In this document: positions 10,156-27,888 of the stretch, piece after piece
How positions within the stretch are numbered: position 1 is the stretch's first letter
Layout of the letters: the number at the start of each line of letters is the position of its first letter
DNA from: a virus
Virus record (IMG/VR): IMGVR_UViG_3300036903_000029
Location: 1 to 36,003 of that record
DNA length: 36,003 nt
Reading direction: 5' to 3' (one strand)
Notes under the pieces: generated by a model
What the model was told of the DNA's origin: nothing
The model's database searches: none
The model's input: only the letters and a program-made list of their open reading frames with translations
Program-made: the position numbers and the translations under genes

Positions 10156-10617
10156 ATGACCAAGAAATTCCGTAAGCTGCTGCACGTCGCTGGATATTTC
10201 GCACTCGCTCTCGCGCTGTTGCTGGCGCCGGCCATGCCGGCATTCGCCACATCGCCCACCAACATCAACGCGCAAACTCCCGTCGGCCCGTATCCCACTG
10301 CAGTGGGCTCTGGCGCGCTGACCATCAGCTCAACCGCCGCGGACACCACCAATGGCAATTCCACCGTGCTATCGGGCCACGAAGTGCTCTGCGCGACGAA
10401 TTCCAGCGGATCCACCGCCTATACCATCACAATCAATTCGGTCGCCGACCAATACGGCCGCACGTCGGACATTACCGCCTATTCCATAGCCCTCAATACC
10501 ACCGCGTGCTTTAGCTTCCTCGGCGGAGTGACGGGTTGGAAGCAGTCGGACGGCACAGTCCATTTTCAGGGTTCCAACGCCCTGATCCTTTTCACCGTTT
10601 ACTACGTCCTCCGCTAA
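10156..10617 (+). CDS. Exported single beta-domain protein, paralogue of the C-terminus of the 26473-27888 product
   Basis: It encodes 153 residues with a textbook Sec signal (KKFRK, then a hydrophobic core, then MPAFA before TSPTN at about residue 32). AAGGAG precedes the ATG. The rest is one domain with TAADTTNGNSTVLSGHEVL, an ADQYGRTSDITAYS segment and FSFLGGVTGWKQSDGTVHF. These blocks recur in the same order at the end of the 26473-27888 protein. I recall similar domains in phage structural proteins, function unknown. An export signal in the head-tail joining cluster is odd, because virion proteins assemble in the cytoplasm. It could be a moron product displayed on the cell surface. Confidence 0.8.
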   Translation: MTKKFRKLLHVAGYFALALALLLAPAMPAFATSPTNINAQTPVGPYPTAVGSGALTISSTAADTTNGNSTVLSGHEVLCATNSSGSTAYTITINSVADQYGRTSDITAYSIALNTTACFSFLGGVTGWKQSDGTVHFQGSNALILFTVYYVLR

Positions 10618-10642
10618 AAACAATTAGCGGTCTTTTCCCCCC

Positions 10643-11011
10643 ATGCCATCGCCACGAATAGCTGCTGGAAAATTGCGCCACCCGGTGGAGCTTGCCCATC
10701 CGAATACCACTCAGGACAGCTCCGGCGGGTGGTCCAAGAACGACGCCAGCAAATATGCCAGCGTTTACGCCGAGATCGTCACGCTCACCGGCAAGGACCT
10801 CTATAACGCGCAGCAGCAGGTATCTGAGGCCACTCACCTAGTTACCATTCGCTGGATGCCAGGAGTGCTCGCCAAGGATCTGGTCTGGTTCAACGACGCC
10901 GAAGGCAACACGCGAACTTTTCAGATCGAAGTAAAATTAAACCCCGATGAAGTCGCCCACGTCCTCCGCCTGATCTGCGTCGAGCGAAACGATTCCGCAA
11001 ATACCTGGTAA
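10643..11011 (+). CDS. Head closure protein (SPP1 gp16 / HK97-type adaptor)
   Basis: It encodes 122 residues matching the phage head-tail joining family: GKLRHPVELAHPN, GGWSKNDASKYASVYAEIVTLTGKDLYNAQQQVSEATHLVTIRW and a C-terminus with EVAHVLRLICVER. This protein closes the connector channel and provides the tail attachment surface. It follows the connector as in related phages and overlaps the next gene by one base (TAATG). Confidence 0.88.
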   Translation: MPSPRIAAGKLRHPVELAHPNTTQDSSGGWSKNDASKYASVYAEIVTLTGKDLYNAQQQVSEATHLVTIRWMPGVLAKDLVWFNDAEGNTRTFQIEVKLNPDEVAHVLRLICVERNDSANTW

Positions 11012-11556
11012 TGCCTGGCGCCTTCGATATCAAGGTGAAGCTGACCGGCTTTGCCGAGTTCGAGCACAAGCTCGAAGAATTGCCTCTCAAAGCGGCGCGT
11101 CACATCGTTCGGGACGTCCTTCACCAAGTGGGGGAAGTCTGGCGCAATGCCATCGCCGCGCTCGTGCGCCGCGGCGCTCACCACGGCGGCAAGAACGGAA
11201 AATCCGTAGCCAACGACGATCCGGAACCCGCCGGCTTCATTGCCGAGAACATCGCGATTGTGATCCGCACGAAGAGCGATGTCTCCGCGACGATGAGCGT
11301 GGGGCCGTCCAAAAAAGCATTTTGGGCCAAATGGCTCGAATTCGGCACCGGCCCGCGCGTGCGGGGAAATGAAACCCACGGCCGAAACCTTCACGGCCTG
11401 GCCCGCAAGATTTATCAGCGTTACCAGAGTGGCGACCGGATGCCCGCTTTTCCTTTTGTCCGGCCGGCATTCGACGAAACGGAGGGCGAGGTTCTGGAGA
11501 AGCTCCGCCTTGGCATCCGCCAATCGCTCATAGATTCCGGCATTCCTCTCGAATAA
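11011..11556 (+). CDS. HK97 gp10-like tail-joining protein
   Basis: It encodes 181 residues starting MPGAFDIKVKLTGFAEFEHKLEELP, the usual opening of HK97 gp10-like proteins. KKAFWAKWLEFGTGPR and AFPFVRPAFDETEGEVLEKL are family segments. It acts in tail completion or head-tail joining. Length is at the upper end of the family. It begins within the stop of the head closure gene and is followed 4 bases later by the DUF3168 gene. Confidence 0.88.
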   Translation: MPGAFDIKVKLTGFAEFEHKLEELPLKAARHIVRDVLHQVGEVWRNAIAALVRRGAHHGGKNGKSVANDDPEPAGFIAENIAIVIRTKSDVSATMSVGPSKKAFWAKWLEFGTGPRVRGNETHGRNLHGLARKIYQRYQSGDRMPAFPFVRPAFDETEGEVLEKLRLGIRQSLIDSGIPLE

Positions 11557-11560
11557 ACCG

Positions 11561-12004
11561 ATGCTGACTGACGGCCTTTACAATCTGCTCTCGACCTCCG
11601 CGGCGATCACCACGCTTATCGGCACGCCGGCAACGCGCAAAACCACGAGCAACGGCACGGTCAACGACAGCGGCATCTTCTTTGTTTCAGCGCCGGAAGG
11701 AACGCTCGCGCCCTACATCGTCTATTCGCAGATCTCCGGCACCGGCAATCCGGTGTTTGAGGGCGAAGACCCGCTGCAGCGTGGCCGCTTCGAATTTTCC
11801 TGCTATGCGGTTTCCGCCAAATCCGCCAAGACGCTGGCTCGCGCGGTGAAGTCCCTGCTGCTGGGCCTTTCACAGACCCTTAGTGACGGCACAATCGTTA
11901 ACGAAATTACCCTGGCCAGCGAGCAGGACTTGTTCGAGGACGGCCCGTTTCAGTACCGCACGACGGTGGACGTGATGATTCTCTTCACCGATATCGGAAG
12001 TTAA
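11561..12004 (+). CDS. Tail terminator / completion protein, DUF3168-like
   Basis: It encodes 147 residues with LYNLLSTSAAITTLIG near the start, PYIVYSQISGTGNPVFEGEDPLQRGRFEFSCYA in the middle and a FQYRTTVDVMILF end. This is the pattern of DUF3168 / lambda gpU-type proteins that cap the tail tube at the head end. Order (gp10-like, DUF3168, then tail tube) agrees. Confidence 0.85.
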   Translation: MLTDGLYNLLSTSAAITTLIGTPATRKTTSNGTVNDSGIFFVSAPEGTLAPYIVYSQISGTGNPVFEGEDPLQRGRFEFSCYAVSAKSAKTLARAVKSLLLGLSQTLSDGTIVNEITLASEQDLFEDGPFQYRTTVDVMILFTDIGS

Positions 12005-12022
12005 TTTTTCCAGGAGAAAAAC

Positions 12023-12286
12023 ATGGCTAATGAAAAAGCACAAAAAATGCCCGCGGGCACGTTCAAGGCTGGCGACAAGGTCCGGCTGACCGATCCCGAC
12101 GTGCTTCCCAAGCTCGATTCGCGCGAGGGACAAGTGACCGGCATTTGCTCCGACGGCCGTTGCGTCCGCGTGGCTTTTCCGGGCGAAGTGGATCTGAAGG
12201 GCAAACAAAAATCTCTCGCTGTCTGGTACGGCGTGCTCGAAACCGTCAGCTCGCCCGCCGCGTCCGTCGCCCCCGCAAAACTGTAA
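12023..12286 (+). CDS. Small protein with SH3/KOW-like beta pattern, unknown role
   Basis: It encodes 87 residues; the stretch FKAGDKVRLTDPDVLPKLDSREGQVTGICSDGRCVRVAFPGE resembles a small SH3-like barrel (a pattern guess). An AGGAG sits before the ATG. It is placed between tail terminator and tail tube. Role unknown. Confidence 0.7.
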   Translation: MANEKAQKMPAGTFKAGDKVRLTDPDVLPKLDSREGQVTGICSDGRCVRVAFPGEVDLKGKQKSLAVWYGVLETVSSPAASVAPAKL

Positions 12287-12346
12287 TCCCCTGACGCGCC
12301 AGGCAGCCGCGCGAATCTTCCATTCCCCATCTTCCAGGAGGCACCA

Positions 12347-12790
12347 ATGACTTACACAGGCACACAAGCTTTCAGCGGCCGCGGAACACAGATTGAAATC
12401 GGCAACGTCTTTCCCAGTCCCACGGCTTACATTCCCATCGAGGAAGTGAACAAGTGCTCCCCCTCGGGAAATAAGCTGGATACCGACGACGCGAGCAATT
12501 TCGAATCCGGCATCAACAAGGAATTCATTTCGACGATGCTGGATAACGGCGAGATAAAACTCGACGGCAACTTCCTCCCCACGGCGACCGGGCAACTGGC
12601 TCTTCAGGCCGCGTTGCAAACCGGCCAGTTGAACAATTTCAAGCTCGTTTTCGCCAGCGGCCCGAACGGCGGATACGACTTCACGGGCTACGTCACTTCG
12701 TTCGAACCCGATATCCCGGTGGACAAGATCGTGAAGTTTACCGCCTCGATCAAGATCACCGGCCCGTTTGTCTGGACTTCCACGCCGTAA
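12347..12790 (+). CDS. Major tail tube protein
   Basis: It encodes 147 residues with GRGTQIEIGNVFPSPTAYIPIEEVNKCSPSGNKLDTDDASNFESGINKEFIST and KIVKFTASIKITGP. This is the pattern of tail tube proteins of the lambda gpV/TP901-like class, which stack as hexamers to form the tail tube. AGGAGG lies 7 bases before the ATG, a very strong ribosome binding site, as expected for an abundant protein. It lies upstream of the tail chaperone as usual. Confidence 0.87.
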   Translation: MTYTGTQAFSGRGTQIEIGNVFPSPTAYIPIEEVNKCSPSGNKLDTDDASNFESGINKEFISTMLDNGEIKLDGNFLPTATGQLALQAALQTGQLNNFKLVFASGPNGGYDFTGYVTSFEPDIPVDKIVKFTASIKITGPFVWTSTP

Positions 12791-12793
12791 ACC

Positions 12794-13225
12794 ATGAAAA
12801 AACAGCATTCACCATCCGCCGCCAATATTGACGCGAAGGCCACGGAGTATCTCGCCGCGCAGAAAGAGGTCGCCCGGCTCCGCACGGAGCTGAGCGACCT
12901 GGTCCGCGCGGTGGGCAAAACTCCGCACAACGCCGAAAAGACCATGCTCCTCGAAGGTGCCGGGTACGATCTGCGCCTTTCGACACGCACGGAAACCCAC
13001 GTGGATACAGCCGGAGCTCTGGCGCTCGCGAAAGCCTGTCCGCCAAAGATCTTCGAGCAACTGTTCAGCCGCGTGGATAAGTTCGTGGTGTGCCGAGGTG
13101 CGCATAAATTCGTCTCGCTATTGCCTGGCAAATCGGGCACTATCGCACGGGAACGGTTCTACGCCGCTCTCGATACGAAAGAGATGGGCTCTCAGCTCAA
13201 AGTCACGAAACGAAAGCAGAAATAA
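12794..13225 (+). CDS. Unknown tail-module protein with N-terminal coiled coil
   Basis: It encodes 143 residues. Residues about 10-45 (AKATEYLAAQKEVARLRTELSDLVRAVG) look like a coiled coil, and the rest is basic and ends KVTKRKQK. It starts 4 bases after the tail tube stop, so it is probably co-translated. No family recognised. Position between tube and chaperone suggests a late tail or regulatory role. Confidence 0.7.
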   Translation: MKKQHSPSAANIDAKATEYLAAQKEVARLRTELSDLVRAVGKTPHNAEKTMLLEGAGYDLRLSTRTETHVDTAGALALAKACPPKIFEQLFSRVDKFVVCRGAHKFVSLLPGKSGTIARERFYAALDTKEMGSQLKVTKRKQK

Positions 13226-13230
13226 CGTTT

Positions 13231-13258
13231 TTCAACCAGTGGGCGCGAATGGTACCAT
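13231..13258 (+). promoter_or_regulatory. Candidate promoter before the tail chaperone gene
   Basis: TTCAAC (13231-13236), 16 bases, then TACCAT (13253-13258) with a TG one base before it (extended -10). The 15-bp block GGTACCATTCG[G/C]GCC around it recurs at 29593-29607 at the same distance from a -35-like box. Sequence quality is modest; the recurrence raises its interest. Confidence 0.35.
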
Positions 13259-13278
13259 TCGGGCCTGACGTCGTTGTA

Positions 13279-13351
13279 GCCGCTCTCTTCCTCCCCCGTT
13301 AGGAGCGGCGCTGCCGAAGGGCTGGTGCGCATTCCGCGACGTGCCAGCCCT
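13279..13351 (+). other. Two consecutive stem-loops in the leader of the tail chaperone gene
   Basis: First stem GCCGCTC (13279-13285) with GAGCGGC (13303-13309). Second stem AGGGCTGG (13318-13325) with CCAGCCCT (13344-13351). They fill the 150-bp gap between the unknown gene and the chaperone start, whose AAGGAG follows at 13362. No T-tract, so a leader RNA structure is likelier than a terminator. Confidence 0.45.
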
Positions 13352-13375
13352 AGCTTCTCCCCAAGGAGATAACCA

Positions 13376-13903
13376 ATGCCGAAAGATAAGCGCCCCGCGC
13401 TGCGCCGCTCGATTACTCCGTCTATTCCCCTGAAGCTCGATCTTCACGATGCCGAGGGCGAATTCACCGCTGAGTTCAAGCTCTGCCTCGAGAACGGCTC
13501 CATGGTGCGTTTCGAGGAAAAATCCGGCGTCAATACGCTCGCCCAGGGACCGCTTGAAATCTGGGCGGGAATGGACGCCAGGCGTCTTTCCGCGCTGCTT
13601 TGGGCCGCCGCGCTCGCGCACAACCCCGAATATGACAGTGACGAAGGGCTCGAAGTCATCCGCTCCTACGTTACCGACGAAAACGCCAAACAGGTTTACG
13701 AAGCCCTGTGGGATGCGCACCTCGCTTCGCTCTCTCCGGAGCGCCGCAAGCTCATGAGCGAAATCCGCGCCAAGGGAAAGGAAACGCTGGCCGATGAGGA
13801 TCCCACGCGCGACCCTTTCGGCGGCCAGGCGGCGCCACCGGCGCCGGAGCTGGCCAGCAACCCACCTGGCGGGACCTCTGGGCCGTTGCCCGCTACGACC
13901 TAG
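13376..13903 (+). CDS. Tail assembly chaperone, short (zero-frame) form
   Basis: It encodes 175 residues. The core (LKLDLHDAEGEFTAEFKLCLENGSMVRFEEKSGVN ... ALLWAAALAHNPEYDSDEGLEVI) resembles the first of the two tail chaperone proteins (lambda gpG-like) that wind round the tape measure during tail assembly. It is followed by a Pro/Ala/Gly-rich end. AAGGAG precedes the ATG at 13376. Most ribosomes would end at TAG 13901-13903. The slippery heptamer CCCTTTC at 13813-13819 lets some enter the -1 frame and make the long form. Confidence 0.88.
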   Translation: MPKDKRPALRRSITPSIPLKLDLHDAEGEFTAEFKLCLENGSMVRFEEKSGVNTLAQGPLEIWAGMDARRLSALLWAAALAHNPEYDSDEGLEVIRSYVTDENAKQVYEALWDAHLASLSPERRKLMSEIRAKGKETLADEDPTRDPFGGQAAPPAPELASNPPGGTSGPLPATT

Positions 13904-14184
13904 GACTTAGCGACCGGGAGTTCTGGCGGCTAACCTCCGGCGAATTTGAGGCTCTGCTCGAGCGTGCCGAGGCTGGGCGCAAAACAGCGCGGTTCAATAC
14001 CGCGGTTATCGCCTCCACCATCTACAACGCCAATCCGTTTCGTGGCGAGAAGTCATCTCCCGTTTCACCCGGTGACATTTTTCCTGAATTCGCGCTGCCC
14101 GTAAAAGTCCAAACCGAAGAAGAGGCTGTCGCCGCCTTCCGCGCCGTCTTCGGCTCAGGTCCGCCCATCGTCAATGAAAATTAA
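13376..14184 (+). CDS. Tail assembly chaperone, long form by -1 frameshift at CCCTTTC
   Basis: The -1 frame is open only from 13798 (a TGA ends at 13797) to TAA 14182-14184. It encodes an acidic segment with WRDLWAVARYDLGLSDREFWRLTSGEFEALL, the pattern of the second chaperone domain (lambda GT-like). It has no start codon with a ribosome binding site. In the shared window lies CCCTTTC (13813-13819), set in the zero frame as C CCT TTC. After slipping back one base both tRNAs re-pair (Pro CCC, Phe TTT). The predicted product has 148 zero-frame residues plus 121, 269 in total. Function: links the tape measure with tail tube subunits. The frameshift is inferred from frame layout. Confidence 0.82.
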
Positions 14185-14389
14185 TAATCTCGCCGTCATC
14201 TGTCCGCCTAACTTCAAACTCTCCGAATGGCTGCGCCTTCGCGCGTCCTGGGCCAAGTTGCCGCCTCCGCCCAAACCCGAGCCGCCCACTCACGAAGAGC
14301 TGCTGCTCGCCTCGTTCCATACCGGGCTTACCACCTACCAGAAATTCGCCGCCGGCACGTCCAAACCGCCCCGCGAATTGGATCTCTAA
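14174..14389 (+). CDS. Small protein between tail chaperone and tape measure
   Basis: It encodes 71 residues with a proline-rich middle (KLPPPPKPEPPTHEELL). The ATG at 14174 overlaps the end of the long chaperone form, and the stop is 3 bases before the tape measure start, so it is in the operon. Family not recognised. Small genes at this place may assist tail assembly. Confidence 0.7.
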   Translation: MKINNLAVICPPNFKLSEWLRLRASWAKLPPPPKPEPPTHEELLLASFHTGLTTYQKFAAGTSKPPRELDL

Positions 14390-14392
14390 ACC

Positions 14393-17300
14393 ATGGCTGA
14401 CGCTGTAGGTTCCCTAAGAGTTGATCTCCTGCTGAATCAGGCCGAGTTTCTGGCCGGGATGAAGCAGGCCGGAAGCGCTGCAACACGCGCTGGCCGGGAG
14501 ATCAGCGATTCGTTTACCAAGCTCGGCGCTCTCGAGACAGTTGCGCTCGCGCCGCTAAACGCCCTTGGTGCGCAATTCGGCGTCTTCGCCACGCTGGCCG
14601 CGAAGAGCATGGGAACGGCGATCGGCGCGGTGGCTGCGCTGCCCAAGGCGCTCGAAAAAGCGCAGGGCAGCTTCGGAAAATTCGGAGCTGTGCTGGGCCT
14701 CGCGGGAAAGGGCGTTATTGGAATTGGAATCGCAGGAGTGGCCGCCGGCGCGGGAATTATCACCCTGGCGCTGCACACTGCTGAATCCGCGGCGAAAATG
14801 TATGCGCTTTCGCAATCGACCGGCGTTAGCGTGGAAACCCTCAGCGGGTTCGCATTTGTCGCCAAGCAATCCGGCGTGTCGGCCGAGGCGATGAATACTT
14901 CGCTCGAGCGGATGAACCGTTCCGCCTTTGCGGCCGCCACTGCGCCGCACGGCGCGACTAACGCCTACACGCGCCTGACCATTGCCGTGCGCGACGCCAA
15001 TGGCGCGCTCCTGCCTACCCAGGAGATTTTCAAAAGCATTGCCGATAAATTCGCGGCCATGGCCGATGGTCCCGCCAAGGGGGCTCTTGCCATCCAGCTA
15101 TTCGGGAAAAGCGGAGCTGACGTTATACCGATTCTTAACCAGGGGCGCGCGGGAATCGACCAGTACATGGCCACCGCGCAAAAGCTGGGCATCGTGCTCA
15201 GTACGCAGACCGCCGAAGCGGCCGACAAATTCGAGCAGTCACTCAATGAGATTACGGCTGCCGGCGAAGGCCTCTCGCTCAATCTTTTGCGAGCCTTGTT
15301 GCCGAGCCTCCAGGCCATCGCCAGCATGGTGACCCGGTTATCCCAAAGCACTGAATTCCAACAATGGGCAGAAACTGCCGTTACGTGGATGAGCAATATC
15401 GCAAAGGGCGCCCTGCTCATGGGCGATCTCACGGTGCTCACATTCCGCGAACTGATTGACGTATTTCAGGTCACAGTGCGCGAGCTGGCTGCTGTTGGCG
15501 ATGCCATGACTGGTGTCGCCGAAATAACAGCCGGAGATCTCGTCGATGGAGTAGCCCGGCTGAAAAAATCCTGGGATCAAGCCAGCGGCGGAGCAACAAA
15601 ATATTATGCCGATGCGAAGGGCGCGGCATCTGATAGCGCCAAATTCGCGGCGGATTTAATACGGCCTCCGTTTCAAGGAACTACCGGTCCCCAGCGGCCG
15701 CGCGGCGGTGGTGACGCGGATACGTCCGCGGCGAAATCGCGCATCAATGTGATTGCCGAAACCATCGCGCGATTGAAGGACGAAGCAGCCGCGGAAGCCG
15801 AGCTCGCTCGCGCCGTGGGTGGAACGACAGCCAGCATAATCCTGGCCACTGCCGCTGAAAAAGCCAACGAGGAAATCGCGCGCCTGCAGATCTCCGCGAA
15901 AAATGGCGGCCGCTCGGTCACCGAAGCGCAAAAGCAGCAGATCCGCGATCTCATTACTCTTACGGAAGCGTATAAGGCCGGCTTCGAAGACAACAAAGGC
16001 CTCGACGAATTCATCCGCAAAACCCAGCAGGAAACCGCCGCACTCGATGCGCTGGCCAAAGCCCATGGGCTGGGCCCCGCGGCGTATGCGACCGCGCAGG
16101 GTGGCGCGCCCCTCGAGAAATACCGGCAGGAAGCGGGCGATCTTACCGAGCTGATTGCCAAGCTGAAGCTTTACGGCGCTACTTCCTCCGCGCTCGCTCC
16201 GCTGGTCAATGAGCTGGACCAGCTCAATTTGAAAATGGGCGTGGCAGCCGCGGCCGAGAAGCAGCTCGAAGCAGGAAAGCTAACCAAGGACTTCAACGAG
16301 GAGATAGACAAAGTCTCCGCCGAGACCAAGGCGCTCAATGACAATACGTTAGCCCTTGTGCGTGGAGGAGACGCGCGCCGTCAGCTTGCCATCACTCAGA
16401 AAGTGAATGAGTGGGCTGCCGAGCCCGCGCACAAAGGTGCCACTCCGAATCAGCTCGCTGGAATCCGCGCAGGCGTCACGCAGGAAAGCGATGCTCAACA
16501 GCTCGCCGGCGCTGGGGAATCCGTCGCGTCCTTCAGCCGCGTCCCCGCCATCCAGGCGGAAATCGACGTGCTCTCGAAGCTCCGATCGGCCGAGCTGGCC
16601 GCCGGGCAATCCACGATATCCACCGATGCGCTGATCGCTTCGAAGGAAGCCGAGCTGGCCACCGCACGCGCGCAGCAATCGCAGCAATACATTCAAAACA
16701 TCATCGCCATTCAGCAGGCCAATTTTGATATGGCCAATTCCGAGCTGCTCAACGAAGCACGGCTGCACGACTCCCAGCGCACGCTGATCGAAGACTGGGA
16801 CCGCGCCGCGCTCGAGGTGGGCACCTTCGGCGACAAGGTTCGTGCGGTGCTGAATGAAATTCAGCTCGAAGGGCAGAACGCCGCCGCCAACATTGCTCAG
16901 GCCTTCAAGACTGCGCTCGATGGGGTGAATGACGAAATAGCCAAGATGCTCACTGGCCAGAAGTTTAACTTCGGTCAGATCGCCACCCAGCTCGGGCAAT
17001 CACTCGTCAAGAGCGGTCTGCAATCCGCCGAGGGCTCGCTTACCACCGCGCTTTTTGGCTCGGCTGTAAAGACCGGCCAGCTCGGCTCTAGCGCCGGCAA
17101 TCCTATGTTCGTGTCCATGGTGAACTCTACCGGGCTGTCCACTCCGGGCAGCACTTCGTCCACGGGAATTCTCGGCAGCCTTATTCCAGGGCTTGGGGGC
17201 AGTAGCGGTTCTTCGGGAATCAGCGGCTTGCTCGGCGGAGTGCTCGGCAAATTCGGAATTGGCGCGCCCGGCGGCGGCGGTACGTCGTCCAGTTCGGCTC

Positions 17301-17701
17301 TCGGCACCCAGGGCAATCCGATGTATGTGATCAGCGCTTCGGGGGCAGGTGGAGGCCTGGGCGGCATCCAGCTTCCAGGATTGTCTGGCGCTGGAGGCGA
17401 TTCCGGCGGCTCATTCTCCGACGCGATCTCCGCCGCATTTGGCGGAGGCCTTGCCGATGGCGGCGATATGACTCCCGGCAAAGCTTACCTGGTGGGCGAG
17501 GATCATCCTGAGATCTTGTTCGCTGGACGGTCCGGCGGCAGCGTCTCCCCTTCGCTCAAAATGGGCGGCGGCACAACCGTCAACCAGACCAACCACTATC
17601 ACGGCGTCAGCGATGCCGACAGCTTCCGCCGATCGGAAGCGCAAACGGCTGCCAGCCACGCCCGCGACACGTCCATCGCACTCAAAAGGAATGGCCGCTG
17701 A
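14393..17701 (+). CDS. Tail tape measure protein
   Basis: It encodes 1102 residues and sets tail length; by the usual ~0.15 nm per residue it suggests a tail near 165 nm (rule of thumb, not measured). Residues ~1-45 (SLRVDLLLNQAEFLAGMKQAGSAA) are the common start. A hydrophobic Gly/Ala region (~95-135) is followed by QSTGVSVETLSGFAFVAKQSGVSAEAM, then long helical stretches. The last ~200 residues are Gly/Ser-rich, contain two similar blocks (GNPMFVSM, GNPMYVIS) and end with LADGGDMTPGKAYLVGEDHPEILFAG and NHYHGVSDADSF, as is common in GTA-like tape measures. Its stop overlaps the next start by one base. Confidence 0.95.
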   Translation: MADAVGSLRVDLLLNQAEFLAGMKQAGSAATRAGREISDSFTKLGALETVALAPLNALGAQFGVFATLAAKSMGTAIGAVAALPKALEKAQGSFGKFGAVLGLAGKGVIGIGIAGVAAGAGIITLALHTAESAAKMYALSQSTGVSVETLSGFAFVAKQSGVSAEAMNTSLERMNRSAFAAATAPHGATNAYTRLTIAVRDANGALLPTQEIFKSIADKFAAMADGPAKGALAIQLFGKSGADVIPILNQGRAGIDQYMATAQKLGIVLSTQTAEAADKFEQSLNEITAAGEGLSLNLLRALLPSLQAIASMVTRLSQSTEFQQWAETAVTWMSNIAKGALLMGDLTVLTFRELIDVFQVTVRELAAVGDAMTGVAEITAGDLVDGVARLKKSWDQASGGATKYYADAKGAASDSAKFAADLIRPPFQGTTGPQRPRGGGDADTSAAKSRINVIAETIARLKDEAAAEAELARAVGGTTASIILATAAEKANEEIARLQISAKNGGRSVTEAQKQQIRDLITLTEAYKAGFEDNKGLDEFIRKTQQETAALDALAKAHGLGPAAYATAQGGAPLEKYRQEAGDLTELIAKLKLYGATSSALAPLVNELDQLNLKMGVAAAAEKQLEAGKLTKDFNEEIDKVSAETKALNDNTLALVRGGDARRQLAITQKVNEWAAEPAHKGATPNQLAGIRAGVTQESDAQQLAGAGESVASFSRVPAIQAEIDVLSKLRSAELAAGQSTISTDALIASKEAELATARAQQSQQYIQNIIAIQQANFDMANSELLNEARLHDSQRTLIEDWDRAALEVGTFGDKVRAVLNEIQLEGQNAAANIAQAFKTALDGVNDEIAKMLTGQKFNFGQIATQLGQSLVKSGLQSAEGSLTTALFGSAVKTGQLGSSAGNPMFVSMVNSTGLSTPGSTSSTGILGSLIPGLGGSSGSSGISGLLGGVLGKFGIGAPGGGGTSSSSALGTQGNPMYVISASGAGGGLGGIQLPGLSGAGGDSGGSFSDAISAAFGGGLADGGDMTPGKAYLVGEDHPEILFAGRSGGSVSPSLKMGGGTTVNQTNHYHGVSDADSFRRSEAQTAASHARDTSIALKRNGR

Positions 17702-19374: not shown

Positions 19375-19896
19375 ATGCCCTGCGATCTAAGCAAGCCCGG
19401 TTTTAAGAATCTGAGGCGAAGTGATTTCCCGCCATATCCGCTGGTCACCATAGAACAAATCGTATCGTCCGCGCGGACGTATATCGGCACGCCATTTCGC
19501 CATCAAGGACGCGAAAAGGGGAAAGCGTGCGACTGCGTGGGCTTGCCGCTGATGGTTGGCGAAGAGCTGGGCCTCGTGGACACGCTCGGCAATCCATTCA
19601 CTCGTTACGACCACGTCAACTATGGAGCCCAGCCGGGCGACGACATGGTCCTGCGAATCTGCCGGCAGCGCCTGGTTGAAATGCCTGAAGGCCACCAGAT
19701 CCAGCCAGGAGATCTGCTGGCCATCAAGAATCCGCGCATCGCCTGCCACGTGGGAATTGCCACTATGTTGCAAGGATCGCTGGGCGTGATTCACGCGCTG
19801 GATATTTCAGGAATTCGCCGCGTGGTGGAGCACGGGCTGCGTGGTTACCACGTGTCGCACATCAAGGCTATTTTCACTTTTCCGGGGATTGAGTAG
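19375..19896 (+). CDS. NlpC/P60 cysteine peptidase of the tail tip (GTA g14-like)
   Basis: It encodes 173 residues. The catalytic cysteine is C54 in the DCVG motif and the histidine is probably H125 in ACHVGIAT; a third polar residue would follow near VIHAL. The family cuts peptidoglycan stem peptides, here probably to let the tail pass the wall during injection. Order after DUF2460 and DUF2163 is the GTA order. An alternative start at GTG 19444 would remove a short N-terminal segment. The stop TAG overlaps the GTG start of the next gene. Confidence 0.93.
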   Translation: MPCDLSKPGFKNLRRSDFPPYPLVTIEQIVSSARTYIGTPFRHQGREKGKACDCVGLPLMVGEELGLVDTLGNPFTRYDHVNYGAQPGDDMVLRICRQRLVEMPEGHQIQPGDLLAIKNPRIACHVGIATMLQGSLGVIHALDISGIRRVVEHGLRGYHVSHIKAIFTFPGIE

Positions 19897-20789
19897 TGGC
19901 TCAGCTCATCATCGTTCCGGCGCTCGAAATTGGAGTGGGATTTCTGGGCGGGCTGCTCAACAAGCCCGCGCCGCCCGCGCCGGTCACCAACAATCAAATC
20001 ACCAGCTCCGCGCCAGGCGCGCCGATTCCCTTCGGCTACGGCTTCCAACGCATTCCCGGCCAGCTCATCTGGACCACCGGAATAACTTACACCACCGTCA
20101 CCCCTTCGAAAAAAGGAGGCGGCTCGGTTATCGGATATCTGTATCAGGCCAGCATCGCCATGGCCTTCTGCGAAGGGTCGGCAGCGATCCTGCAGGTCTA
20201 TGGCGACAGCAAACTAATCTACGACACCAACCCGGACCCGGCGCAGGATCTGCCCTCGCAGTTCTATCCGCCGTGGAATTCGGCCACGCTCTACAATCCC
20301 GGCAACCTGGTGAACTATGGCGGCGTTGGCTGGATCTGCATCCTCACCAACACCAACATCATTCCGGGAACCAACCAGACTTATTGGAACACTGCCAGCG
20401 GCTACGGCCCGTGGAACAACCAGACGGTCTATAACCCTGGCGACGAAGCCACCGACGCCGGACAAATCTGGGTTTGCATGGTTTCGAACGGTCCGGGTAC
20501 CTCGCTGGGCGTCGTCGAGCCCTACTATGTCAGCGATCCGGACCCCTCAGATCCTCCGCCATGGGAAACGCTGAGGCAGTACTACGGCACGCCCACGTTT
20601 TATTCCGGCGCGGGCCCCGGAACGCAGCTCCCCGATCCGCTCATCCAGGCGGCTGAAGGCGCAGCCATCACTCCGGCATTCACCGCGCTCAACTATTTCA
20701 CCTGGGCCAATTTGCCGCTGGCCAATTTCGGCAACCGTATTCCCAACACTCGCGCCCTGATCCAGTTCCCGATTCTGTGCCAGTGCTAA
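19896..20789 (+). CDS. Tail hub protein, N-terminal part, with two inserted W/Y/G modules
   Basis: It encodes 297 residues from GTG 19896. The opening (GAPIPFGYGFQRIPGQLIWTTGITY) and IAMAFCEGSAAILQVYGDSKLIYD are typical of the first domain of GTA g15-like hub proteins. From W127 and again from W173 there are two short modules (WNSATLYNPGNLVNYGGVGWIC; WNNQTVYNPGDEATDAGQIWVC), similar to the insertion in the connector protein. The end (FTWANLPLANFGNRIPNTRALIQF) is where relatives continue into the next domain. Here a TAA stops the frame, and the next gene restarts in the same frame two codons later. Confidence 0.85.
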   Translation: MAQLIIVPALEIGVGFLGGLLNKPAPPAPVTNNQITSSAPGAPIPFGYGFQRIPGQLIWTTGITYTTVTPSKKGGGSVIGYLYQASIAMAFCEGSAAILQVYGDSKLIYDTNPDPAQDLPSQFYPPWNSATLYNPGNLVNYGGVGWICILTNTNIIPGTNQTYWNTASGYGPWNNQTVYNPGDEATDAGQIWVCMVSNGPGTSLGVVEPYYVSDPDPSDPPPWETLRQYYGTPTFYSGAGPGTQLPDPLIQAAEGAAITPAFTALNYFTWANLPLANFGNRIPNTRALIQFPILCQC

Positions 20790-20795
20790 GACTCC

Positions 20796-22634
20796 ATGTC
20801 CGAACGTCTGACACAGGTAGCTCTCGAGGTCCTGAACCCCATCCCGCCGGGGATGCGCCTTACACAGGTTGCGCTGGAAGTCATCATCCCAGCGTCGTGC
20901 GGGATTGCCTGCATCATCCTGGACCTGTGCATTCGCGCGGGCCTCGAGTGCAGCCAGGTTAACGTCGCGCTGCTCACTTCGGCGAACCTGCAGCCGAATA
21001 ACACCTGCATCGGCTACGTGATTGACCGGGCCACTTCGGCCGCGGACGCCATCCGCGTGATCATGGAGGCGTATTTCATCGACGCCTGCGAGTCTGGCGG
21101 ACAGCTCAAATTCGTCCCTCGCGGACTCCCCGCGCAAACACTTACCATTCCTGAAAGCGATCTCGGCCTGGTGAGTGACGACGCCGAAGTAATTCCCGAA
21201 CAATTCGGCGACGAGCAGGATCTGCCGCTCGAATGCATAGTCACCTATACCGACATCGAGCTCGATTACCAGTCCAATTCGCAGCGCTGGAAACGCAACT
21301 CGCGCATCGTCACCACCAAGCAGCAAAAGCAGTTGAGCTATCCGCTGGTGATGACTCCCGACCAGGCCATCAACATTGCCGCCGCGGCGCTCTATTGGGA
21401 ATGGGTGGGCCGACAGGCATTCGATTTCAACGACTGGCGCGCGGTCGCGATGCTCTACGATCCCACCGACGTCATCCAGTTTATTTACGAGACCATCACC
21501 TGGGGAGTGCGCATTACCGATCACGAAATCGGCCAGGGCTTTGTCTCCAAGTTCAAAACGCTCAATGAAGAGGGCGCCATCTATAAGCCTCTGCCTTTCG
21601 GAGTCGGCGGCAGCCGCGTCGGCAACGGCGCAGGGATCATCAATTTCAAACGTTCCGCGCTGCGCTATGTTGGACCGCCGCAGACGTTCCTATTCGATAT
21701 TCCCCTGTTGCGCGACGGCGATTCCAATCCCTCGGGCACGGGCTACTACTTCGGATTAAGCTCCACGCTGCCGCAGTGGGCAGGCGCGGCGCTCATGCGC
21801 TCGGCCGACAATTCCACTTACACCCAGGACTCGGCCGCGCCGAACGCGATTTATTACGGCTATGCCACCAACGCTCTCGGCTCTCCCGCGTCACCGTGGG
21901 TCTGGGACAATGCCAACTCGCTCACCATCGCTTTGAAAACTCCCGGAGCGGCGCTGGCCGGCGTCACCCAGCTCCAGATACTGAATGGCGCGAACGCGCT
22001 GATTGTCGGCTCGGCCGCCAACGGCTGGGAAATCATGCAGTTCGAGAACGCCGTGCAAAACATGGACGGGACGTGGACCGTCAGCGGCTTGCTGCGCGGC
22101 CGCCGCGGCACGGAGTGGGCTTGCGGCACTCACGCGATCGGAGACCTGGTGGTTGTGCCGATCTCGGGAATCCAGCGCGTCCAGAATCCTTCTTCGCTGC
22201 TCAATCAGCCTTACGACTATCGCGGCGTTTCCGTCGGCCAGGACGTCACCAGCGGCTCCATCCAGCAATTCACCCTGGTTGGCAATGACCTGAAGCCTTA
22301 CGCGCCGTGCCAGGTCACCGGCAGCCGCGATATGTCCGGCGATCTCACCATCGCCTGGGTGCGCCGCACGCGCATCGGTGGAGACGCTGAAGCGACCTGG
22401 CTGGGCGGACTTTCCGAAGTTCCGCTCTATGAACAGGAAGAGCTCTACGAAGTGGATATTTATAACGGCTCGGTTATCGTCCGGCAAATCACCGGGCTTA
22501 TTTCGCCGACCACCGTCTATTCCGCCGCGGACCAAACCGCCGACTTCGGCTCGGTGCAGAGTTCGATCCACATGAAGATTTATCAGGTGTCCGCCGTCGT
22601 GAATCTCGGCTTTCCCGCGACCGTCACTCTCTAA
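20796..22634 (+). CDS. Tail hub protein, C-terminal part (GTA g15-like)
   Basis: It encodes 612 residues. It starts with a tandem duplication of RLTQVALEV (20805-20831 and 20856-20882). Then comes the normal hub core: IACIILDLCIRAGLECSQVN, TSAADAIRVIMEAYFIDACESGGQLKFVPRGL and SVGQDVTSGSIQQFTLVGNDLKPYAPCQV, ending with DLTIAWVRRTRIGGDAEATWLGG and an ELYEVDIYNGS beta domain. Together with the gene before it makes up one hub protein of 912 codons interrupted by a single stop. No clear Shine-Dalgarno precedes the ATG, so it may depend on coupling or readthrough. Confidence 0.88.
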   Translation: MSERLTQVALEVLNPIPPGMRLTQVALEVIIPASCGIACIILDLCIRAGLECSQVNVALLTSANLQPNNTCIGYVIDRATSAADAIRVIMEAYFIDACESGGQLKFVPRGLPAQTLTIPESDLGLVSDDAEVIPEQFGDEQDLPLECIVTYTDIELDYQSNSQRWKRNSRIVTTKQQKQLSYPLVMTPDQAINIAAAALYWEWVGRQAFDFNDWRAVAMLYDPTDVIQFIYETITWGVRITDHEIGQGFVSKFKTLNEEGAIYKPLPFGVGGSRVGNGAGIINFKRSALRYVGPPQTFLFDIPLLRDGDSNPSGTGYYFGLSSTLPQWAGAALMRSADNSTYTQDSAAPNAIYYGYATNALGSPASPWVWDNANSLTIALKTPGAALAGVTQLQILNGANALIVGSAANGWEIMQFENAVQNMDGTWTVSGLLRGRRGTEWACGTHAIGDLVVVPISGIQRVQNPSSLLNQPYDYRGVSVGQDVTSGSIQQFTLVGNDLKPYAPCQVTGSRDMSGDLTIAWVRRTRIGGDAEATWLGGLSEVPLYEQEELYEVDIYNGSVIVRQITGLISPTTVYSAADQTADFGSVQSSIHMKIYQVSAVVNLGFPATVTL

Positions 22635-22643
22635 GGAAAACGA

Positions 22644-23426
22644 ATGAGCACTCCCAGCCTGGCCCTCGCCTACATCGCCAACAATCAGAACCAGGGCGAA
22701 GTCCCCTGCAATGCCGCGTTCCTCGGTCTCGACCTGGCGACGAATGCCGAAGCCTCCTGGCCGACCGGCGGCTCGGATGTAACGCTGACCCAGGCGCAGC
22801 TCGCTTCAGCCATGGTCCACGTGCTGAGCGGCGCGCTCACTGGTGACAAGCATTTGATTTTGCCGGCCAGCGTGCCGCGCACCTTTATCGTGGTGAACGA
22901 AACCACCGGCGGCCACAACATCATCGTCGAAGTTACTGGCGCGCCTGGATCCACCGTCAGCCTGCTGGCGAGTGCGGGCTACGCGCTCGTCTATTCGGAC
23001 GGCACGAATGTGGTTGAGATCTCCGGAGGCGGCGGAGGGGGCGGCGGCTCAGTCACATCCGTCGGGCTCAGCATGCCGCCAGGATGGAGCGTCGGCGGAT
23101 CGCCGGTCACGAGCTCCGGAACTCTGGCGGCTACGCTCAACGCGCCGCTGGCCAAGTCCGTCAGCTATGCGCTGGCTGATGCCGATAACACCGTGCTTTT
23201 CACCACTGGTTCGAGCGCGCTCACAGCGACGCTGCCCACCGCGGTGGGGATTGCCGCTAAGCGCTCCACCATCAAGAAAGTGGATTCCGGATCCGGAGCG
23301 GTCACCATCGCGACGACGTCCTCGCAAACCATTGACGGGCAAAGCTCCTGGAGCCTGCCCAACCAGTTTCAGTACCTCACTGTCGAATCCGACGGCAGCA
23401 ATTGGTGGGTCGTCGCCAACAATTAG
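22644..23426 (+). CDS. Tail fibre / collar-type protein
   Basis: It encodes 260 residues in two beta-rich parts joined by a run of eight glycines (residues ~130-137). After the linker comes SVTSVGLSMPPGWSVGGSPVTSSGTL, a stretch common in phage fibres, and a C-terminal domain ending QFQYLTVESDGSNWWVVANN, which recurs widely at fibre ends. The N-terminal part probably attaches to the hub. AAGGA precedes the ATG. It likely belongs to the receptor-binding apparatus. Confidence 0.75.
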   Translation: MSTPSLALAYIANNQNQGEVPCNAAFLGLDLATNAEASWPTGGSDVTLTQAQLASAMVHVLSGALTGDKHLILPASVPRTFIVVNETTGGHNIIVEVTGAPGSTVSLLASAGYALVYSDGTNVVEISGGGGGGGGSVTSVGLSMPPGWSVGGSPVTSSGTLAATLNAPLAKSVSYALADADNTVLFTTGSSALTATLPTAVGIAAKRSTIKKVDSGSGAVTIATTSSQTIDGQSSWSLPNQFQYLTVESDGSNWWVVANN

Positions 23427-23434
23427 GACAAAAC

Positions 23435-25378
23435 ATGCGCAAACTATTGTCATTGTGCTGCCTTCTGGCGGCCGTTTTTCTTGTCAGCCTATCGGCATTC
23501 GCCCAGGGCGGCGCCGCGACGGATACCCGCTACGGCGGTTCGCTGCCTGGCGCGTGCAACACGCACCAAATCTTTTCCTTGGTCAGCGGCGGCAATGCTA
23601 CCTACGAAGGCTGCACGTCCACAAACACTTGGTCGGCTTTCGCCTTGGGAAGCGGCACCACCTTCCAGGTGGACGGCACGGGACTTTCGTCCTCGAGCAC
23701 GGTGAATTTTCAGGATGCCCTCGCGTTCAACGGCCTGACGCTAACTTTCACCAATCCCTCGGCGGGCAATGTGAAGCTGGTGTGGAGCGGCACGCTGGGC
23801 AATGCCGGGCTAACCAATTCCAGCATGACGGTGGGATCGACGAGCTGCACGCTGGGATCCACCTGCGCTCCATCCACCACCGTGAATGGAACGAGCTGCG
23901 TCCTGGGTTCGACTTGCACCGTCACCGCCAGCGGCTCGGGCGTGAATCTCTCCATCCCCAACGACACGACCACCGGCACGACGGTAAACAAGCTCGCAAA
24001 AATGACTTCGGTGCAGAAAGCCATCATCACCGCGACCACGGATACAATCGCGCTACAGATTGGAATCGTGACCGCCAATGCGGGAACTTCCGGGACAGCC
24101 ACGATTGCGATCTCCGGCGTAGGCGTCTCCTGCGTATTCGATGGCGGCACCACCGCGGGCGACTACGTGATTAACTCCGTGACGATCGCGGGCGATTGCC
24201 ACGACACCGGAAGCAGCACTTACCCGACGGCCTACGGAAACACGGTGGGCATGGCGGTTGCCACCAACAGCGGCGCGGGAACTTACACCGTGAACATGAA
24301 CAATGCGCCGACCGGCAACGGAATTGGCGGCGGCATCGTCGGCCGCTCGGCTGACAATGCTTTCAACATGCTGGCGCTTTGGACTGGCCCGACCTCACTA
24401 GGAATCACGCCCACCGACATGGGCGGAAACGGGTGGGGAGTCCAGCGGAGTACTGGACAACTTATTGAGGGAAGCTGCTGCGGCGGCTCAACGACAGGAA
24501 TGATCGACTTGCAACCAACCTCCGGAAATGGCTACAGCTTTGAAATTAACAGCGGTGCTGTCGTCTACGGATACGGGATGAACAACGCGGCGGGACACTG
24601 CCTGTGGTGCGCCTACAGCCAAAATAATTCGTCATCCTTCGGCGCGCGTGAAGTTCTTGATGGCTCGCTGACCATCGCCACGTTTCAGGCTGTGGGCCCA
24701 ACCCACACTGCACGCCTGCAGGTGCTCAATACGACTGCCGATTCCTTTCAGGATGCGCCGGCCACCACCACCCAGTTTGGCGCCATCGGCCTAGGCGAAA
24801 ATACCTCGCTCTACAATCTCGGCTTCGATGCGGACGGCGTCAGTGGATGCCTGGCAGACAACACCATCACAATCGGGCACTACTTGAGTTTTGGCACAGG
24901 GACTGCCGCATATTGCCGCGACATCGGCACGGGCTGGTTTTATCCGGGAGACATTATCGGCCAGGCCATGAACTCGGTTTCCGGCGGCGCCACGGCCGAC
25001 GTCGTGCTGAGTCATGAAGTCCGCGGCGGCGCGTATGCGGCGGCGTTGCCGGTGGATTCCGCCGCGCAAACCAGCAGCATTGGATCCACTTCCCTCCTCA
25101 CTCCGAGCGCCAACGGAATGTTCCGCGCGTGCTATTACTTCTCCACCACCACGGCCGGATCCGCTGGCACAGTCAGCCTCAGCTTCACTTATACCGACAA
25201 TGCTCAGGCTGAAACGTTTGCCACCAGCACCATCAATCTGGCCACGCTGGGAGCCAATCTGGGCGGCTGCCAGGAGTTCTACGCGCTCACCAGCGCGGCG
25301 CTGAAATACCTCACCACTGTCTCCGGAGCGAGCGGCAGCCCGCAATACGATCTTCACCTGCGTATCGAAGCCGAATAG
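23435..25378 (+). CDS. Large fibre-like protein with a Sec signal peptide
   Basis: It encodes 647 residues from ATG 23435, 9 bases after the previous stop. The start RKLLSLCCLLAAVFLVSLS, then AFAQGG, is a complete signal peptide with a likely cut at AFA-QG. The mature part is Thr/Ser/Gly-rich and contains repeats of the type GSTSCTLGSTCAP / GTSCVLGSTCTV, common in phage fibres. The C-terminal 130 residues (SAAQTSSIGSTSLLTPSANGMFRACYYFSTTTAGSAGTVSLSFTYTDN ... YDLHLRIEAE) form a jelly-roll-like end. Length and position say fibre; the signal peptide says secreted. Which is right is not settled by sequence. Confidence 0.75.
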   Translation: MRKLLSLCCLLAAVFLVSLSAFAQGGAATDTRYGGSLPGACNTHQIFSLVSGGNATYEGCTSTNTWSAFALGSGTTFQVDGTGLSSSSTVNFQDALAFNGLTLTFTNPSAGNVKLVWSGTLGNAGLTNSSMTVGSTSCTLGSTCAPSTTVNGTSCVLGSTCTVTASGSGVNLSIPNDTTTGTTVNKLAKMTSVQKAIITATTDTIALQIGIVTANAGTSGTATIAISGVGVSCVFDGGTTAGDYVINSVTIAGDCHDTGSSTYPTAYGNTVGMAVATNSGAGTYTVNMNNAPTGNGIGGGIVGRSADNAFNMLALWTGPTSLGITPTDMGGNGWGVQRSTGQLIEGSCCGGSTTGMIDLQPTSGNGYSFEINSGAVVYGYGMNNAAGHCLWCAYSQNNSSSFGAREVLDGSLTIATFQAVGPTHTARLQVLNTTADSFQDAPATTTQFGAIGLGENTSLYNLGFDADGVSGCLADNTITIGHYLSFGTGTAAYCRDIGTGWFYPGDIIGQAMNSVSGGATADVVLSHEVRGGAYAAALPVDSAAQTSSIGSTSLLTPSANGMFRACYYFSTTTAGSAGTVSLSFTYTDNAQAETFATSTINLATLGANLGGCQEFYALTSAALKYLTTVSGASGSPQYDLHLRIEAE

Positions 25379-25409
25379 TTTCCCCCCAGTTTTTCCCCAG
25401 GACAACCTC

Positions 25410-26456
25410 ATGGCTCTAGTCTTCTGCGACAGCTTTGATCACTACACCAATCCAAGCCAGAAGTGGGACCTGGTGGGCGTCTCCGGCATCTATCCGCAGA
25501 TTCAGTCCGCCAGTGTGCGCACCGGCGCGCAGGCACTCGAGATCGCGAACGCGCTGGGGCGTGCGCCAGTCTTCGTCCAGAAAAACATTCCCACCCAGGC
25601 AACCTACTTTCTGGGCTTCGCCCTGAACGTGATCAACAATTCGATCCAGATTCCCATTTGCGAATTCCTCGATAGCAGCCAGACGCAGGTCGGTCTATTC
25701 CTCGATTCCGGCGGACACTTCCAGTTCTATCGCGGCAGCATCAGCGCCGGGTACGTCCTGCTGGGTTCGCCTTCCTCGCAAGCATTGCCGTTTGGCTGCT
25801 TCCATTACATCGAAGTGAAGGTCGCCATCGACCACATCTCCGGCCAGTGTCAGCTTAATGTGGACGGCACGGTGTGGCTTACCCTCGCCGACCAGGATAC
25901 CCAGTACACCGCCAACCCGCTGATCGGCGCCATCACCATCAGCTCATGGGATCTCGGCTTCGACGCCAATAACTTTCAGGCGTTCGTTGACGACGTATAC
26001 ATCTGCGACGATAGCGGAACAAGCTGCAACACCTTTCTCGGCAATATACAGATTCTGTGCGGCATGCCCGACGCCAACGGCACAGCCAACACCTGGACGC
26101 GCGGCGGCACCAACCTGGGAACCAACTACAAGCAGGTGTACGAAATCCCTCCGGACGACGACACCACCTATCTCGAAGATGTCGCCGCGACCTACATCCA
26201 GGCGGCCTGCTATTCAGGAACGACTGCGGCAGCCGAGCCGGTGATTCCCTTCGTGCCGCCCAGCTCCTATGCCGACGGCCAGGGATTCTTTCCGGTGGAT
26301 CCAAATACCGGCTCGCCCTGGGGAACGTCAGCTCTCACCGCCGCGCAGTTTGGCGTGATAAGTTCCGACGGCTCGATCGATCGCTACCTCTTTCCCATCC
26401 TGCCGACCACGGTCATCATCGCCGCCGCCGTAAACATGCGCGCGAAGAACGCCTGA
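25410..26456 (+). CDS. Tail-end protein with lectin-like (LamG/ConA-type) N-terminal domain
   Basis: It encodes 348 residues and no signal peptide. The first ~210 residues (FCDSFDHYTNPSQKWDLVG ... FGCFHYIEVKVAIDHISGQCQLNVDGTVWLTLADQDT ... FQAFVDDVYICDDSG) follow the pattern of concanavalin-like jelly rolls used for glycan binding. The second part (GNIQILCGMPDANGTANTWTRGGTNLGTNYKQVYEIPPDDDTTYLED) is seen with this domain in other phage tail-end proteins. It probably binds surface sugars. Confidence 0.8.
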   Translation: MALVFCDSFDHYTNPSQKWDLVGVSGIYPQIQSASVRTGAQALEIANALGRAPVFVQKNIPTQATYFLGFALNVINNSIQIPICEFLDSSQTQVGLFLDSGGHFQFYRGSISAGYVLLGSPSSQALPFGCFHYIEVKVAIDHISGQCQLNVDGTVWLTLADQDTQYTANPLIGAITISSWDLGFDANNFQAFVDDVYICDDSGTSCNTFLGNIQILCGMPDANGTANTWTRGGTNLGTNYKQVYEIPPDDDTTYLEDVAATYIQAACYSGTTAAAEPVIPFVPPSSYADGQGFFPVDPNTGSPWGTSALTAAQFGVISSDGSIDRYLFPILPTTVIIAAAVNMRAKNA

Positions 26457-26472
26457 GCTCTTTTCGAATCCC

Positions 26473-27888
26473 ATGCGAAAAATATTCCTGTTTTCATTCC
26501 TGCTGCTGATTACCCTTTTCGGATCCTCCGCGCGAGCCCAGTATCCGACGGGAGTGTACGCGGTCACGCCCAACAGCACGGCGAATGGCTACCTGCTCTC
26601 CCAGGCCAACGTGAAGGGCCAGGTAATCTTCGTGCCATGGTCCACCATTGACAACGGCAGCGGAACTCTGGATTGGAGCACGGTGGAAACGGCAATCGCG
26701 CCCTGGGCCGGAGCAGGCAAAAAAACTGCTCTGGTAATTTGGGGAGTGACCGCCGATAACCTCAGCGTCACCGCCGCCCCTTCATACGTTCTCAACCAGC
26801 TCCCCGCCATGGTGAGCTGCGCGGTGAACGCCGGCACCGGCTACGCGCCCAACTTCACCAACCCGATTTTTATATCCGCGTACAGTGGATTTCTGAATGC
26901 GACGATCGCCAGGTATGGAAGCGATTCGCGCATCGGCTTCATTCGCGTCGGGCTGGGCGCCGGAGGCGAGATTTTTCCGCCGTGCAAATCTCAGGAGGAA
27001 AGCACCTACGGATTGACCCAGGCCGGATATCAGTCCTACCTCGAAACCATGATCGGCAACGTTCCCCCGGGCAGCAACCCGGTGCAGGTCGGGGTGGATT
27101 GCTATGGCGGGAATTGCAATTCCACCACCATCGCTCTTTCCAATAACATCGCGGCGTACGCGGTCGGCGCGCGCTGGGGGATCGGCAAGGAGTCCCTGCA
27201 GGATTCCGACATCACCGCGTGGAATTCCGGCCAACCCTGCGACGCCAACTGGTGCGCCCAGTTCGCCGAATATCCTACGGCGTTTCACGATCTGCAGTTC
27301 GCCGTGCCCACTTGCCCCGATGGCAACTGCGCAGTGGGATCGCCCGTTACCCTGCTGCCCTTTGCGGCCACGCGCGACGCTCAGGTAGTCGAAATGGCCC
27401 AGCCGGATTACTGCATCGCCTACGGACCGTCCTGCTCGGGAACCTATACCGCGGCTTATGACGCAGCCATCGCGGCCTTCGACGCCGCAGCGGGATCCAC
27501 GTGGACTCCGTCGGCTCCCACCAATTTCCAGGTTACTATCGTCCCCGGACCGGATGCCGGCAACGTGACGCCCGGATCGCTAAACCTCAGCTTCACCGCC
27601 GCCGATACGGTCAACGGCAATGCCGCGCCGCTGAGTGGCCACGAAATTCTGTTGGTGCGCAATACCGATACGTCCGCTCACAACTTCACAATCTATTCCA
27701 CGCCCGATTTCTTCCTTCGCACCGGCGACGTCGGCCCCTATTCGCTCGCCGGCGGCGCCACGGCCGGCTTCAGCTTTCTCGGCGGAGATCCCGTCGGGCC
27801 CCTCGGCTGGCGCCAACCTGACGGCGGAATGCACATCCTCGCCGATGACACCCACGTCCAGTTCGTCATGCTCGGCGCACATCTCTAA
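26473..27888 (+). CDS. Exported TIM-barrel (glycoside hydrolase-like) protein with C-terminal beta domain
   Basis: It encodes 471 residues. A clear signal peptide (RKIFLFSFLLLITLFG, then ARAQ) leads into a region resembling TIM-barrel glycoside hydrolases: VKGQVIFVPWSTIDNGSGTLDWSTVE, KKTALVIWG and IGFIRVGLGAGGEIFPP, where the glutamate could be the acid/base. A second acid, in VVEMAQPDYC, could be the nucleophile. Residues ~365-471 repeat the domain of the 10156-10617 protein (TAADTVNGNAAPLSGHEIL ... FSFLGG ... GWRQPDGGMH). It may act on host polysaccharide, either on the virion or outside the cell. The exact glycosidase family was not identified. Confidence 0.7.
   Translation: MRKIFLFSFLLLITLFGSSARAQYPTGVYAVTPNSTANGYLLSQANVKGQVIFVPWSTIDNGSGTLDWSTVETAIAPWAGAGKKTALVIWGVTADNLSVTAAPSYVLNQLPAMVSCAVNAGTGYAPNFTNPIFISAYSGFLNATIARYGSDSRIGFIRVGLGAGGEIFPPCKSQEESTYGLTQAGYQSYLETMIGNVPPGSNPVQVGVDCYGGNCNSTTIALSNNIAAYAVGARWGIGKESLQDSDITAWNSGQPCDANWCAQFAEYPTAFHDLQFAVPTCPDGNCAVGSPVTLLPFAATRDAQVVEMAQPDYCIAYGPSCSGTYTAAYDAAIAAFDAAAGSTWTPSAPTNFQVTIVPGPDAGNVTPGSLNLSFTAADTVNGNAAPLSGHEILLVRNTDTSAHNFTIYSTPDFFLRTGDVGPYSLAGGATAGFSFLGGDPVGPLGWRQPDGGMHILADDTHVQFVMLGAHL

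What the first reader, a model, noticed from the sequence alone, without database searches (positions are those of the whole stretch)
10156..27888. One beta domain used twice: alone among head genes and fused to a TIM-barrel protein
The mature 10156-10617 product and the last ~105 residues of 26473-27888 share, in order, TAADT.NGN...LSGHE, an RT.D...YS block, FSFLGG and GW.Q.DG..H. By eye 35-40 of about 100 positions are identical. Both copies follow signal peptides. Such a common tag on two exported products, 16 kb apart, suggests a shared binding partner (surface glycan, S-layer or virion).
Basis: seen in the sequence. Interest (0 to 1): 0.6.

Follow-up and report, generated by a model that had tools for sequence, protein, structure and literature searches.

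The report
Phage virion module fused to host-like barrel
A soil phage of Acidobacteria uses one small beta-rich domain twice: once as a short protein of its head-tail region, and once at the end of a secreted, sugar-enzyme-like barrel protein whose only clear relatives are bacterial genes, including two in the presumed host, which suggests that the phage put its own docking module on a captured bacterial protein.

Summary
The 10156-10617 product and the C-terminus of 26473-27888 share 50 of 121 residues (BLASTP E 6e-24). Both match, independently, a family profile built without window or L004 rows (E 3e-36 and 9e-27), and both models hit the same ~115-aa uncharacterised phage proteins. It is not a unique tag but a widespread phage accessory protein. 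In 13 distinct loci it lies beside the major tail protein gene (10) or between connector and head-closure genes (3), so 'head genes' should read 'head-tail joining and tail-tube genes'. The 17 other virus records checked each hold one copy. New here: the barrel is not a phage family. Its closest relatives are two chromosomal loci in the Acidobacteria MAG that also holds this virus (52% and 48% identical), neither with the beta domain; intermediates link it to GH42-type barrels. So a host-derived exported protein appears to have been joined to a phage module. Two other standalone copies carry signal peptides; the remaining ten start at the domain. Most likely the module docks the barrel where the standalone protein sits (virion surface); this is inferred, and the signal peptides complicate it. 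A shared glycan ligand remains possible.

The parts
10156..10248 (+). Signal-peptide-like N-terminus (residues 1-31) of the standalone protein
   Evidence: MTKKFRKLLHVAGYFALALALLLAPAMPAFA; AAGGAG ribosome-binding-like site upstream; kept in the 85%-identical relative L004 with dN/dS about 0.34 on few substitutions
10249..10614 (+). Standalone beta domain
   Evidence: family profile without window or L004 rows E 3.4e-36; AF2 pLDDT 90.8, pTM 0.83
26473..26538 (+). Signal-peptide-like N-terminus (residues 1-22) of the fusion protein
   Evidence: MRKIFLFSFLLLITLFGSSARA; heuristic
26542..27507 (+). Host-like barrel domain (residues 24-345), GH42-like by remote homology; invariant E166 (26968-26970) and E307 (27391-27393) are candidate catalytic acids (inference)
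   Evidence: 52% identity to a chromosomal gene and 48% to a second locus in MAG palsa_278; hhalign 94.4% to a GH42-like pair; invariant residues
27508..27885 (+). Fused C-terminal beta domain (residues 346-471)
   Evidence: 41% identity to the standalone copy; family profile without window or L004 rows E 8.7e-27; well predicted in the fusion model
9226..10140 (+). gp6-like head-tail connector, upstream neighbour
   Evidence: Pfam PF05135 E 4.3e-7
10643..11011 (+). Head closure Hc1, downstream neighbour
   Evidence: phrog_25 E 4.2e-16
12347..12790 (+). Major tail protein, the usual neighbour of this family in other phages
   Evidence: phrog_158 E 1.5e-22

Best explanation
SHOWN: both products carry the same domain, which belongs to a phage family normally encoded as a complete small protein beside the tail-tube or head-tail connector genes. 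The fused copy follows a barrel whose clear relatives are bacterial, not phage. INFERRED: the standalone protein is a virion accessory (decoration-like) protein. In this lineage the domain was duplicated, and one copy was joined behind a host-derived, exported, glycoside-hydrolase-like barrel. Because the standalone protein is nothing but this domain, the domain must hold the surface that attaches to the virion, so the fused copy should place the barrel on the same sites. Both products look exported, so the likeliest route is that they gather in the periplasm or outside the cell and attach to particles at lysis; decoration proteins can bind finished capsids (own knowledge, e.g. T5 pb10). The barrel would then act on cell-surface or soil polysaccharide met by the particle.
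For: Family membership of both copies independent of each other; same predicted fold and shared structural neighbours. Location beside the major tail protein in 10 of 13 distinct loci, and between connector and head closure in 3. Weak PHROG links to phrog_16194 'tail protein' (6 of 12 members, best E 2.9e-8) and phrog_122 'head decoration' (2 of 12, best E 6.7e-5). Barrel relatives only in bacterial genomes, closest in the MAG that holds this virus, with no other viral relative found. Tree joins the window pair and L004, support 82/80.
Against: No virion proteomics, and no member of the family with a tested function was found. The signal peptides would take the proteins out of the cytoplasm where virions assemble. 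The fusion gene lies between tail-fibre-like genes and the lysis region, a usual place for accessory cargo genes that need not be virion parts. Structural comparison with solved decoration proteins was inconclusive. The tree support for a duplication is moderate and the fused copy has a long branch.
Confidence: 0.42

Rival explanations
1. The domain is a glycan-binding (CBM-like) module. Standing alone it gives the virion weak adhesion to a surface or soil polysaccharide; fused to the barrel it makes an ordinary GH-plus-CBM secreted enzyme, a lysogenic-conversion or auxiliary metabolic gene.
For: The barrel is GH42-like through intermediates and the protein looks secreted. CBM22 and CBM_E1 modules appear among weak PDB fold matches. 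Known decoration proteins such as Hoc and pb10 are described as binding carbohydrates (PMC7602432).
Against: Fold matches to CBMs are at noise level (TM about 0.3-0.4, Z about 5), with unrelated folds alongside. The host relatives of the barrel do without the module. No conserved aromatic binding strip was identified.
Confidence: 0.25
2. The domain is a general stabilising or oligomerising beta module that phages reuse, like phage Ig-like domains; the two products need share no partner.
For: Ig-like domains are known to recur in tail fibres, tail tubes, head and decoration proteins (PMC7602432). Family-like matches occur in a tail-fibre PHROG (phrog_693, weak) and in longer viral proteins.
Against: In this family the domain is usually the whole protein in a fixed syntenic place, which suggests its own specific role; only one fusion was found.
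Confidence: 0.2
3. In this lineage both products have left the virion and work at the cell envelope of infected or lysogenic cells, for example in superinfection exclusion or surface glycan remodelling.
For: Signal peptides on both, and on standalone copies in L004 and L022. Further signal-peptide-bearing late genes in the window at 23435, 27925 (lipobox-like), 29086 and 30392.
Against: The standalone gene kept its place among the joining genes and its domain core residues; no membrane anchor after cleavage. Signal peptides were judged by heuristic only.
Confidence: 0.13

Closest known systems
PHROG families phrog_16194 (tail protein), phrog_38030, phrog_24894 and phrog_122 (head decoration)
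   Same: Small phage proteins of about 110-120 aa; several members of this family match them
   Different: Matches are weak for most members; the standalone copy from the window matches none at E <= 1 and the fused copy only weakly; no barrel fusion is noted in the family descriptions seen
Ig-like and other promiscuous surface domains of phages (T4 Hoc, T5 pb10, lambda gpV C-terminal domain)
   Same: One compact beta domain reused in head, tail and fibre proteins of tailed phages (PMC7602432; gpV from own knowledge)
   Different: No sequence match to solved structures and no convincing fold match; here the partner is a host-derived exported barrel
Glycoside hydrolase family 42-type barrels (PF02449) and DUF4832 proteins
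   Same: More distant relatives of the barrel hit PF02449 (L032, E 4.8e-9) or DUF4832 (L048, E 8.1e-9); profile link to the L032/L041 pair 94.4%
   Different: The window protein and its closest chromosomal relatives match no Pfam family convincingly; activity unknown

Membership tests
The small phage beta-protein family defined here (standalone members L006-L024) | Significant profile match over the full domain, window copies left out of the profile | tested here: met
   E 3.4e-36 and 8.7e-27; hhalign 99.9 and 99.6
The small phage beta-protein family defined here (standalone members L006-L024) | Gene beside major tail protein or head-tail connector genes | tested here: met
   Met by the standalone copy 10156-10617; the fused copy at 26473 lies elsewhere
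PHROG phrog_122 head decoration | Profile match of the window copies | tested here: not met
   No match for either window copy at E <= 1; 2 of 12 relatives match, best E 6.7e-5
Virion decoration protein (function) | Present on purified virions | not testable with these tools
   Needs proteomics or cryo-EM
Ig-like fold | Ig-type two-sheet beta sandwich | tested here: inconclusive
   All-beta model of good confidence but no clear fold match; topology was not assigned
Glycoside hydrolase family 42 (PF02449) | Match at the curated Pfam threshold | tested here: not met
   No Pfam match for P0002 at E <= 1; relative L032 yes, L041, L033 and L034 below threshold
Glycoside hydrolase family 42 (PF02449) | Two catalytic glutamates in a TIM barrel | tested here: inconclusive
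   E166 and E307 invariant in three sequences; the barrel did not model, so their positions in the fold are unknown

The most novel reading that the evidence does not exclude
An Acidobacteria phage lineage makes exported, signal-peptide-bearing versions of a virion decoration module and uses one copy to load a captured host polysaccharide-active protein onto virions after lysis: decoration from outside the cell, with cargo taken from the host.
Probability: 0.18. Interest if true: 0.68.

Novelty: new variant of a known kind. Interest (0 to 1): 0.42.

Why it matters
It gives a position-conserved, unnamed phage protein family (beside the tail-tube or joining genes in 13 of 13 loci) with a confident model, and one natural fusion that hints at what the module does. 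If the module docks on virions, it is a natural display system for host enzymes in soil phages. The signal peptides on a presumed virion protein pose a testable question about where and when such proteins join the particle.

Tried and rejected
tblastn of several family members and of a consensus against 50,697 phage records found nothing at E <= 0.1 and nothing significant at E <= 10. Sequence search of solved structures with the family profile: none. Foldseek and VIA-align against PDB: no match standing out; a fold family absent from those lists is not excluded. Profile searches of 396 genomes drawn from the phylum and 89 of the family of palsa_278 found the beta domain only in palsa_278 itself. 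Chance resemblance was rejected. The tail-fibre-like protein 23435-25378 had no relatives beyond the same virus in the collection. An alignment of the whole family was too varied for a degenerate DNA scan, so closer subsets were used.

Full report
WHAT WAS CLAIMED AND WHAT IS THERE. The standalone product 10156-10617 (153 aa) and the C-terminus of 26473-27888 (471 aa) align over 121 positions with 50 identities (BLASTP E 6e-24), far above shuffled controls. No other pair of predicted window proteins is similar at E <= 0.1. At DNA level only short traces remain (71% over 68 bases), so the duplication or separate entry is old.

THE DOMAIN IS A PHAGE FAMILY. Scans of viral contigs gave relatives at 35-85% identity, collapsing to 13 distinct loci with the window. 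Leaving out window and L004 rows, the family profile still finds both window copies (E 3.4e-36 and 8.7e-27), so each copy is a member in its own right. Relatives are usually complete proteins of about 115-125 aa starting M(P/A)R.TLT... AlphaFold models the standalone domain well (pLDDT 90.8, pTM 0.83) and the same domain in the fusion. Both models have A0A6J5PFJ9 and Mycobacterium phage Typha A0A482JC30 among their best hits in the viral structure library. PHROG links are weak: 'tail protein' phrog_16194 for 6 of 12 members and 'head decoration' phrog_122 for 2 of 12.

POSITION. In L006, L007, L009, L016, L022, L024 and L054 the gene lies between the tail terminator and the major tail protein; in L011 it lies between them with a gap of about 0.9 kb before the major tail protein; in L010 and L052 it follows the major tail protein; in the window, L004 and L013 it lies between connector and head-closure genes. 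Neighbour functions were checked by PHROG or Pfam for the window, L006, L007, L009, L010, L022 and L024; the presumed L022 terminator and L013 head closure gave no PHROG match, and the rest are read from sequence similarity and gene order. This makes a virion accessory role likely, though not shown. Copy number: the records behind 14 loci each gave one match (two of them are fragments of the window's own virus), and 5 further records one each, including one of 60.6 kb; most records are fragments. L017, a distant member, has two weak matches.

THE BARREL IS NOT A PHAGE PROTEIN. The same virus lies on a 38.6-kb contig of the Acidobacteria MAG palsa_278. Searching 396 genomes of the phylum with the fusion protein gave, besides itself, a 371-aa lipoprotein-like gene in the same MAG (52%), a second shorter locus there (48%, barrel spread over two frames), and more distant ones elsewhere. 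The two MAG loci lie on contigs with ordinary chromosomal genes (isocitrate- and malate-dehydrogenase-like proteins; an anion transporter and a protein kinase, as read from sequence) and lack the beta domain. No other viral barrel relative was found. More distant Acidobacterial relatives match GH42 (L032, E 4.8e-9), and the profile link to the L032/L041 pair is 94.4% probable. MAG binning can err, but the closest barrel relatives being in the same bin supports the host link.

SIGNAL PEPTIDES. By heuristic, the standalone copies of the window, L004 and L022 and the fusion protein have signal peptides; the other ten standalone copies start at the domain. In L004 the peptide is kept with dN/dS 0.34, but on only ten substitutions. 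Other late genes of the window at 23435, 27925, 29086 and 30392 also look exported.

HOW IT MOST LIKELY WORKS. The standalone protein is the bare domain, so if it is a virion protein the domain must carry the docking face, and the fused copy should bring the barrel to the same place. Export implies attachment outside the cytoplasm, for example at lysis. These steps are inference. Rivals are a glycan-binding module, a general structural module, and an envelope role in the lysogen; none is excluded. The tree groups the window pair and L004 with 82/80 support, consistent with duplication within the lineage followed by fusion.

COMPARISON AND VERDICT. Phages are known to reuse compact beta domains, above all Ig-like ones, across fibres, tail tubes, heads and decoration proteins (PMC7602432). 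This case works like that, but membership in the Ig-like class could not be shown. It is real, properly homologous and of moderate interest: a new variant of a known habit, made notable by the fusion to a host-derived exported barrel and by the signal peptides.

Noticed in passing
window 30866-31333; L004:1114-1503: A small protein near the right end of the window has a 57%-identical relative in L004 that lies directly beside the beta-domain gene, so another small phage gene has changed place between these related phages.
   Followed up: partly
window 23435-25378, 27925-28335, 29086-29280, 30392-30703: Several late genes, including a tail-fibre-like protein of 647 aa and a lipobox-like protein, have signal-peptide-like N-termini (heuristic); L022:4795-6537 and L006:2463-3128 look similar.
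   Followed up: partly
L047 (MAG palsa_278 contig C120) about 11693-12308: The second chromosomal barrel locus is split over two frames and looks degraded.
   Followed up: no
L045:5578-6015: The MAG copy of this virus contig runs about 5.5 kb further upstream than the window and holds another signal-peptide-like protein of 145 aa.
   Followed up: no
L017:890-1273 and 3314-3712: A distant member contig carries two weakly matching copies of the domain, the only other hint of two copies.
   Followed up: no
window 25410-26456: Neighbour of the fusion gene matches phrog_2448 of unknown function (E 1.6e-24).
   Followed up: no
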